Of a DNA stretch of 64,000 nucleotides, positions 9,737 to 10,293 are shown piece after piece; positions within the stretch are counted from its first letter, which is position 1, and every line of letters begins with the position of its first letter. A program made the position numbers and the translations under genes. The DNA comes from Brucella pituitosa (GTDB lineage Bacteria; Pseudomonadota; Alphaproteobacteria; Rhizobiales; Rhizobiaceae): positions 1,426,001 through 1,490,000 of the forward strand of contig NZ_PYSY02000001.1 in NCBI RefSeq assembly GCF_003049685.1. Direction: 5' to 3'. The notes beneath the pieces are model-generated. The model ran no database searches and was not told the origin of the DNA. It saw only the letters and a list, made by a program, of their open reading frames with translations.

Positions 9737-9768
9737 ACCGGTCGCAGCCTACCCGGTTAAAACAAGGA
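9737..9768 (+). promoter_or_regulatory. preQ1-I riboswitch aptamer upstream of queF
   Basis: ACCGG (9737-9741) pairs with CCGGT (9753-9757) to form P1. Loop 1 reads TCGCAG, then CCTACC; after P1 comes the A-rich TAAAACAAGGA. This closely follows the Thermoanaerobacter preQ1-I aptamer (P1, UCGCAG loop, A-rich tail, terminal AGG). P2 can form between CCT (9748-9750) and AGG (9765-9767), hiding a Shine-Dalgarno. The downstream gene makes preQ0-to-preQ1 reductase, exactly the pathway sensed. Unlike simple cases, the hidden ribosome site serves a short ORF at 9781 before queF. Confidence 0.85.
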
Positions 9769-9780
9769 CAAGCGCTTGAT

Positions 9781-9813
9781 ATGCAAGCGCAAAGACTGCA
9801 CCGTGGCTTTTAA
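9781..9813 (+). CDS. Possible 10-codon leader ORF between riboswitch and queF
   Basis: Reads MQAQRLHRGF then TAA, in the same frame as queF, whose ATG follows 12 bases after the stop. The AAGGA of the riboswitch ends 12 bases before its ATG, a long but possible spacing. A perfect hairpin GCGCTTG / CAAGCGC (9772-9778, 9784-9790) places the ATG in its loop. Translation coupling to queF is an inference; the ORF could also be chance. Confidence 0.3.
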   Translation: MQAQRLHRGF

Positions 9814-9825
9814 AAAGGCACGCAA

Positions 9826-10293
9826 ATGTCTGAAAAGACAATATATTCCGATCTGAAACAACTCGGATCGAACAGCACGGTACCGCAATCACCTGAAGAG
9901 GTCGTACTTGAGCGGGTCGCAAACCCGCAGGCCGGAACACCATACTGCGTCCGTTTCACAGCGCCTGAGTTCACCTCTCTCTGCCCCATGACGGGACAGC
10001 CAGACTTCGCACATCTGATGATCGATTATGTTCCGGGAGAATGGCTGGTTGAGAGCAAATCGCTCAAGCTTTTCCTGTTCTCATTCCGCAATCATGGCGC
10101 GTTTCATGAAGACTGCACCGTGACAATCGGCAAGCGTCTGGTCGAACTGCTTCAGCCTGAGTGGTTACGTATTGGTGGCTACTGGTATCCGCGCGGTGGC
10201 ATCCCGATTGATGTGTTTTATCAAACAGGTGCAGCACCTCAGAATGTTTGGATTCCTGAACAGTCTGTACCCAATTATCGTGGTCGCGGCTGA
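9826..10293 (+). CDS. queF: NADPH-dependent 7-cyano-7-deazaguanine reductase QueF
   Basis: Reduces preQ0 to preQ1 in queuosine synthesis. The 155-residue length is that of the short unimodular class. The T-fold core carries FTSLCPMTGQPDFA with the catalytic Cys at C53 and Asp at D60. The QueF signature motif E(S/L)K is present as ESKSLKLFLFSFRNHGAFHE, with His 94 and Glu 95 in the active site. Its own Shine-Dalgarno AAAGG lies seven bases before the ATG. It is controlled at least in part by the preQ1-I riboswitch just upstream, so product feedback is likely. Confidence 0.95.
   Translation: MSEKTIYSDLKQLGSNSTVPQSPEEVVLERVANPQAGTPYCVRFTAPEFTSLCPMTGQPDFAHLMIDYVPGEWLVESKSLKLFLFSFRNHGAFHEDCTVTIGKRLVELLQPEWLRIGGYWYPRGGIPIDVFYQTGAAPQNVWIPEQSVPNYRGRG

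What the first reader, a model, noticed from the sequence alone, without database searches (positions are those of the whole stretch)
9737..9826. preQ1-I riboswitch controls a 10-codon ORF in frame with queF
Seen: an aptamer very close to the known preQ1-I type ends in AAGGA (9764-9768), which P2 would hide. The next ATG (9781) begins MQAQRLHRGF and stops at TAA (9811-9813); queF starts at 9826 in the same frame with its own AAAGG. A perfect hairpin places the short ORF's ATG in its loop. Inferred: ligand binding blocks leader translation, and queF responds by coupling, or the leader is the cut-off start of a once longer QueF, or stop read-through gives an extended form. Such a relay between riboswitch and gene would be unusual.
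Basis: partly seen in the sequence, partly recalled or inferred. Interest (0 to 1): 0.75.

Follow-up and report, generated by a model that had tools for sequence, protein, structure and literature searches.

The report
preQ1 riboswitch with remote queF switch
Upstream of the bacterial gene queF lies a likely preQ1-sensing RNA element whose strand can pair with a downstream segment that can instead pair with the queF ribosome-binding site, so preQ1 would likely shut queF off directly; the ten-codon reading frame first noticed there is not kept in relatives and is probably incidental.

Summary
The sequence facts hold: a preQ1-I-like aptamer (9737-9768), a 7-bp hairpin with ATG in its loop, a 10-codon ORF and queF in frame. 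The proposed relay does not hold. Of 35 genomes of the genus, 33 keep the aptamer before queF, but 1 of those 33 (the window) has this ORF; near relatives stop after 3 codons or lack the ATG. What is kept is a second device: segment 9796-9807 is complementary to the aptamer's 5' strand (9734-9747), and its 3' half can instead pair with the queF Shine-Dalgarno region (9802-9822). This looks like a two-state switch acting directly on queF, with the ORF written across it by accident. One aptamer thus appears to drive two different output devices. Rfam's PreQ1 model scores the window below threshold and missed the queC copies tried. Ligand binding and switching are inferred; the sequestor is the weaker half of the case. 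New variant of a known kind.

The parts
9653..9677 (+). Terminator-like hairpin of the upstream gene, so queF is likely its own transcript
   Evidence: 9 pairs, 7 G-C, T-rich tail; G+C-rich inverted repeats at this place in most relatives, by eye
9688..9715 (+). Promoter-like pair CTTTAC (9688-9693) and GCTACT (9710-9715), inferred; would place the transcript start about 9722, upstream of the aptamer
   Evidence: TTTAC followed by CTGNTA in 32 of 33 genus leaders, 14 nt apart in 30 of them, L022 differs; the consensus scan did not list it
9737..9768 (+). preQ1-I-like (type II-like) aptamer: P1 9737-9741/9753-9757, loop 9742-9752 with AC at 9751-9752, tail AAAACAAGGA 9759-9768
   Evidence: pseudoknot P2 inferred by analogy
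9734..9747 (+). 5' strand that can pair either inside the aptamer or with 9796-9807
9772..9790 (+). Linker hairpin, 7 pairs, loop ATATG; position kept, sequence variable
   Evidence: (31 of 33 leaders z < -1)
9781..9813 (+). 10-codon ORF of the finding; not kept in relatives
9796..9807 (+). Anti-aptamer strand CTGCACCGTGGC (12 pairs with two bulged bases)
9802..9822 (+). Predicted Shine-Dalgarno sequestor: CGTG/CACG, G.G mismatch, CTTT/AAAG, loop TAA; excludes the anti-aptamer helix
9814..9818 (+). queF Shine-Dalgarno AAAGG
9826..10293 (+). queF (preQ0 reductase, QueF-II type)

Best explanation
The queF leader holds a likely preQ1-I aptamer whose 5' strand can pair with a downstream segment, and that segment can instead pair with the queF Shine-Dalgarno, so preQ1 binding would free the segment to hide the site and likely lower queF translation. 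Without preQ1, 9734-9747 is predicted to pair with 9796-9807, which blocks the 9802-9822 hairpin and leaves AAAGG open. With preQ1 the aptamer would keep its own 5' strand, the 9802-9822 hairpin would form and queF would be shut off: feedback by the product of QueF. The 10-codon ORF lies across both elements and is probably incidental. Shown: the complementarities, their conservation, the absence of the ORF in relatives. Inferred: ligand binding, the pseudoknot, the switch and its direction.
For: The lowest-energy fold of the leader contains the anti-aptamer helix. The pairing energy of the aptamer 5' strand with the linker is better than shuffled linkers in all 33 genus leaders (z < -1 in 33 of 33, < -2 in 20, mean -2.23), against z < -1 in 13 of 105 (mean -0.37) for queC leaders with the same aptamer. 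In 27 aligned leaders (27 of 33) 97.5% of anti-aptamer cells and 95.4% of sequestor cells pair, against 14-47% and 22-71% when slid by 1-3 columns. The GCC just 5' of the aptamer, which only the anti-aptamer helix needs, is present in 33 of 33 queF leaders and in 2 of 112 other pattern loci. Outside the genus the helix is kept by changes on both sides: GCCAC/GTGGC becomes GCCTCC/GGGGGC in L037 (z -2.46) and GCCTCC/GGAGGC in L249 (z -3.88). In L025 and L028-L032 the helix moves to CGCAGCC/GGCTGCG; GGCTGCG follows the aptamer within 100 nt in 0 of 111 pattern loci outside the five distal queF ones. The sequestor has one double change, C-G to U-A in L009.
Against: The sequestor is the weaker half. 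Predicted Shine-Dalgarno openness drops when only the part after the aptamer is folded in 29 of 33 leaders, but the mean drop is small (0.53 to 0.39), exceeds 0.3 in only 9, and is absent in L027, L029, L030, L032; no shuffle control was run for this measure. The window's anti-aptamer pairing alone is reached by 8 of 300 shuffles, and only 11 of 33 leaders are reached by 3 or fewer of 300. Inside the genus the aptamer strand never varies, so the anti-aptamer shows 0 double changes and does not beat column shuffles (500 of 500 reach it); the sequestor's double change is reached in 27 of 500. A structure taken from these sequences tends to beat its slid versions for that reason alone, and related sequences are not independent. 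In 8 of 27 rows one anti-aptamer pair is lost and the helix must shift. ViennaRNA cannot score the pseudoknot. No ligand or expression data.
Confidence: 0.66

Rival explanations
1. One reading: the aptamer's AAGGA drives translation of the short ORF, and queF follows by translational coupling.
For: AAGGA lies 12 nt before the ATG, the ORF ends 12 nt before queF, and 14 of 33 leaders have some in-frame ATG and stop before queF against 7.0% of shuffled window linkers.
Against: Start, length and frame vary: 1 of 33 has the same ORF, 6 of 33 have no ATG after AAGGA, 18 of 33 have no in-frame ATG; some out-of-frame ORFs run past the queF start (for example L008, L010). Eleven of the 14 cases belong to two sets of plainly similar leaders (L001, L003-L005, L007, L013; L028-L032). 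The ATG often arises where an A/T-rich loop meets a G of the hairpin arm.
Confidence: 0.05
2. The aptamer controls queF, but by transcription (Rho access or polymerase pausing) or simply by its folded bulk upstream, and the conserved linker pairs serve RNA stability.
For: Review PMC11625349 (section 9 part 1) reports that a class I type I aptamer still regulates with the site moved up to 10 nt away, and that some type II aptamers control termination.
Against: No terminator-like site was listed on the + strand between aptamer and queF; the Shine-Dalgarno begins 45 nt beyond the aptamer; this gives no reason for the pairing kept across three lineages.
Confidence: 0.17
3. The queF copy of the aptamer no longer regulates: a relic of a duplication from queC, with queF translated at all times.
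For: Two genomes of the genus have no aptamer match at all and still have queF.
Against: The aptamer core is the same in 33 of 33 leaders (by definition of my search string; the tail AAAACAAGGA, not part of that string, is also the same in 33 of 33) while the linker hairpin changes freely. The model search finds two copies in 32 of 35 genomes, one in 1 (72% complete) and none in 2.
Confidence: 0.1

Closest known systems
Class I type II preQ1 riboswitch (Thermoanaerobacter tengcongensis, Bacillus subtilis)
   Same: P1, AC before the 3' strand of P1, A-rich tail, queuosine genes (review PMC11625349: passages, section 9 part 1 of 2). The same pattern also hits a Moorella locus before a queuosine precursor transporter. 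Close likeness to the T. tengcongensis aptamer sequence is recalled.
   Different: Table 1 of that review lists indirect, partial or full occlusion of the Shine-Dalgarno, or transcription termination, for class I; here the site begins 45 nt past the aptamer and is predicted to be hidden by a separate hairpin freed from an anti-aptamer helix.
queC leaders of Alphaproteobacteria with the same aptamer, including the one in this genome
   Same: In this genome the two copies agree over 29 of 30 bases from GGTCGCAG to AAGGAC; 105 of 117 pattern loci precede queC.
   Different: There AAGG lies 6-13 nt before the queC start and there is little excess complementarity downstream.
Translational riboswitches with remote sequestor and anti-sequestor (for example many TPP and cobalamin switches; recalled)
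   Same: Two exclusive helices share a strand, and one hides the ribosome-binding site.
   Different: I saw no description of this for a preQ1-I aptamer in the searches (open-access library; listings, and passages of four papers only).

Membership tests
Rfam RF00522 PreQ1 | Score at or above the curated gathering score | tested here: not met
   21.8 bits against 39; no RF00522 match at gathering in 10 relatives' loci and none up to E = 10 in 7 queC loci
Class I preQ1 riboswitch, type II | AC just before the 3' strand of P1 (review PMC11625349) | tested here: met
   A9751 C9752 in the window; at least 90% identical in 49 aligned aptamers
Class I preQ1 riboswitch, type II | P1 stem kept by paired changes | tested here: met
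   outer pair C-G becomes G-C in L115, L128, L135, L166; the inner GG/CC were fixed by the search pattern and prove nothing
Class I preQ1 riboswitch, type II | A-rich tail ending in AAGG that forms P2 | tested here: inconclusive
   AAAACAAGGA in 33 of 33 genus leaders found through queF; P2 itself not testable; in the wider set the tail was fixed by the pattern
Class I preQ1 riboswitch, type II | Upstream of preQ1 synthesis or transport genes | tested here: met
   queC 105, queF 5, queD 2, queuosine precursor transporter 1 (L115), of 117 loci; the other 4 not assigned
Class I preQ1 riboswitch, type II | Binds preQ1 | not testable with these tools
   none
Remote sequestor/anti-sequestor expression platform | Two mutually exclusive helices, one with the aptamer strand and one with the Shine-Dalgarno | tested here: met
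   as complementarities; the sequestor is weak or absent in the folds of L027-L032
Remote sequestor/anti-sequestor expression platform | Ligand-driven exchange of the two helices | not testable with these tools
   none
Leader-peptide relay | Short ORF conserved in start, stop and frame | tested here: not met
   1 of 33

The most novel reading that the evidence does not exclude
One preQ1-I aptamer, identical but for one base, is used twice in the same genome with two unlike output devices: on queC it hides the Shine-Dalgarno inside itself, on queF it works at a distance through an anti-aptamer helix and a separate sequestor. The enzymes that make and reduce preQ0 could then be set to different preQ1 thresholds by the output device alone. 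The remote device persists across three lineages and may have arisen again in Rhodobacteraceae (L139, L205), and the alphaproteobacterial copies tried lie outside the reach of the current Rfam model.
Probability: 0.5. Interest if true: 0.62.

Novelty: new variant of a known kind. Interest (0 to 1): 0.48.

Why it matters
preQ1-I aptamers are a standard example of a tiny riboswitch that hides the ribosome-binding site inside itself. A natural pair with a near-identical aptamer but a built-in output at queC and a remote one at queF, in one genome, would let the effect of the output device be measured with the sensor held constant. It also points to a set of alphaproteobacterial preQ1 aptamers that the standard library did not report in the loci tried.

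Tried and rejected
Leader ORF relay, read-through and truncated-QueF ideas: rejected on the genus comparison. A TTG start at 9776, 7 nt after AAGGA (26 codons, out of frame): not kept. A terminator on the + strand after the aptamer: none listed; the 9772-9790 hairpin has a T-rich tail only on the other strand. The regular expression missed real copies in L036 and L037; replaced by a covariance model. In one search, minus-strand loci were read in the wrong orientation; corrected. Class-wide sampling found the aptamer in 4 of 289 genomes, the window's own among them, and the family of G363 in 2 of 14; held against the queF places none of these other copies lay next to queF. Gemmobacter L139: the match GCAGCC/GGCTGC is in its lowest-energy fold, but Shine-Dalgarno openness is 0.61 and 0.60 in the two folds and the pairing is no better than shuffles (z -0.02), so it is suggestive only; L205 likewise (0.26 and 0.22; z -0.62). 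McCown 2014 could not be read, so whether it lists these aptamers is unknown.

Full report
Observation. The aptamer is the best Rfam match there (RF00522) but stays below threshold, 21.8 against 39 bits. The gene is queF.

The short ORF. All 35 genomes of the genus searched here have queF. I read the leader in all 35: 33 have the aptamer, L033 and L034 do not. Of the 33, 27 have an ATG after AAGGA, 15 have one in the queF frame, 14 have one followed by a stop before queF, and 1, the window, has this ORF. Near relatives L003, L004, L005, L007 and L013 share the ATG place but stop after 3 codons; L002 has no ATG. In L003 the change that creates the stop turns a G-C into a G-U pair at the foot of the hairpin: structure kept, ORF lost. 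A shuffled linker gives an in-frame ORF this long in 1.8% of cases. Named records Brucella daejeonensis, Brucella tritici and Ochrobactrum sp. RH2CCR150 carry queF leaders of this kind (L212, L208, L199), which is how I place the genus.

What is kept. Between aptamer and queF, three elements recur: a hairpin of changing sequence (31 of 33 with z < -1, mean -2.55; in 11 aligned rows 3 of 7 pairs change on both sides, reached by 41 of 500 shuffles, with L006 and L021 out of register); a segment CTGCNNCGTGGCTT (24 of 33 exactly; L009, L016, L023 with small changes; L025 and L028-L032 of another kind); and AAAGG or AAAGA exactly 7 nt before the queF ATG (33 of 33). The segment is the reverse complement of the aptamer's 5' strand, allowing for small bulges. 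The predicted fold of the whole leader uses this helix. Energies: mean -20.5 against -14.5 kcal/mol for shuffled linkers over 33 leaders. As a control I took 105 leaders where the same aptamer precedes queC: mean z -0.37 there, -2.23 before queF. The three bases GCC just before the aptamer, used only by this helix, are in 33 of 33 queF leaders and in 2 of 112 other pattern loci. The 3' half of the segment can instead form CGTG.CTTT/AAAG.CACG with the queF Shine-Dalgarno. The two helices exclude each other.

Covariation. Within the genus the aptamer strand is fixed, so changes in its partner can only be one-sided. In 27 rows the substitutions in the partner give G-U pairs at four positions; at a fifth, in 8 rows, one pair is lost and the helix can shift to GTC/GAC (the shift is my reading of the pairings). 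I left L025 and L028-L032 out of that alignment (27 of 33 aligned) because their segment differs: GGCTGCG, pairing with CGCAGCC of the aptamer. Outside the genus, L037 and L249 have GCCTCC in place of GCCAC and GGGGGC or GGAGGC in place of GTGGC, with z -2.46 and -3.88. These two-sided replacements are the best evidence that the helix matters. The sequestor has one two-sided change (L009).

Weak points. When only the part after the aptamer is folded, as a stand-in for the ligand-bound state, Shine-Dalgarno openness falls in 29 of 33 leaders but by 0.14 on average over the 33; it does not fall in L027, L029, L030 and L032. The column shuffles do not support either helix strongly within the genus (500 of 500 for the anti-aptamer, 27 of 500 for the sequestor). 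The sequences are related, so the 33 are far from 33 independent tests. The pseudoknot cannot be scored. Nothing shows that preQ1 binds.

The other copy. The same genome has the aptamer once more, before queC, where AAGGAC is followed 7 nt later by ATG. In the genus 32 of 35 genomes have two copies, one has one (72% complete) and two have none; I read the second copy in three of them, each time before queC (L230, L246, L247). The pattern fixes GGTCGCAG, CCC and AAAACAAGG, so their constancy in that set is not a result. In the family, 24 of 121 sampled genomes have a model match (the weakest, in G044, is partial), and 69 of 121 have queF. One, G093, has queF with the built-in device (L036: AAGGA, 8 nt, TTG) and a second, broken queF behind a remote-type leader with an altered aptamer tail (L249). 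So both devices occur at queF in one genome.

Is it transcribed? Upstream of the aptamer, TTTAC and CTGNTA recur in 32 of 33 leaders, 14 nt apart in 30, which looks like a promoter placing the start about 15 nt before the aptamer. This is inferred; the simple scan did not list it.

Literature. I read passages of the review PMC11625349 and part 1 of 2 of its section 9 with Table 1, and passages of PMC10622847, PMC9495176 and PMC2258182. Table 1 gives occlusion of the site or termination for class I. In PMC9495176 the table row for Brucella abortus shows a single plus, which fits its glycine list; I did not examine that species. The listings showed me no paper on a remote sequestor with a preQ1-I aptamer or on queF leaders of this genus; most subscription papers are not held, so this is weak.

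Verdict. It is a new variant of a known kind.

Noticed in passing
L113, L163, L239, L250 (aptamer before queD): In the four queD-linked copies that I read, a 30-33 codon ORF starts just after the aptamer's AAGG and ends at or across the queD start (L163, L239, L250) or 9 nt before it (L113); the peptides do not look alike. QueD in L250 is by eye only.
   Followed up: partly
queC leaders among L103-L219, Rfam RF00522: Alphaproteobacterial queC leaders carry a preQ1-I-like aptamer that RF00522 did not report where tried: none of 10 loci at gathering, none of 7 queC loci up to E = 10.
   Followed up: partly
G010 and G028 (L034, L033): Two genomes of the genus have no aptamer match at all while keeping queF.
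   Followed up: no
L249 1490-2100 (G093): A second queF copy in separate pieces behind a remote-type leader, while the intact copy in the same genome has the aptamer directly at a TTG start.
   Followed up: no
window 9311-9628: Small ORF upstream of queF with only a weak match to NF035935 (ESAT6_3, 24.7 bits against a cut-off of 100); left unassigned.
   Followed up: no
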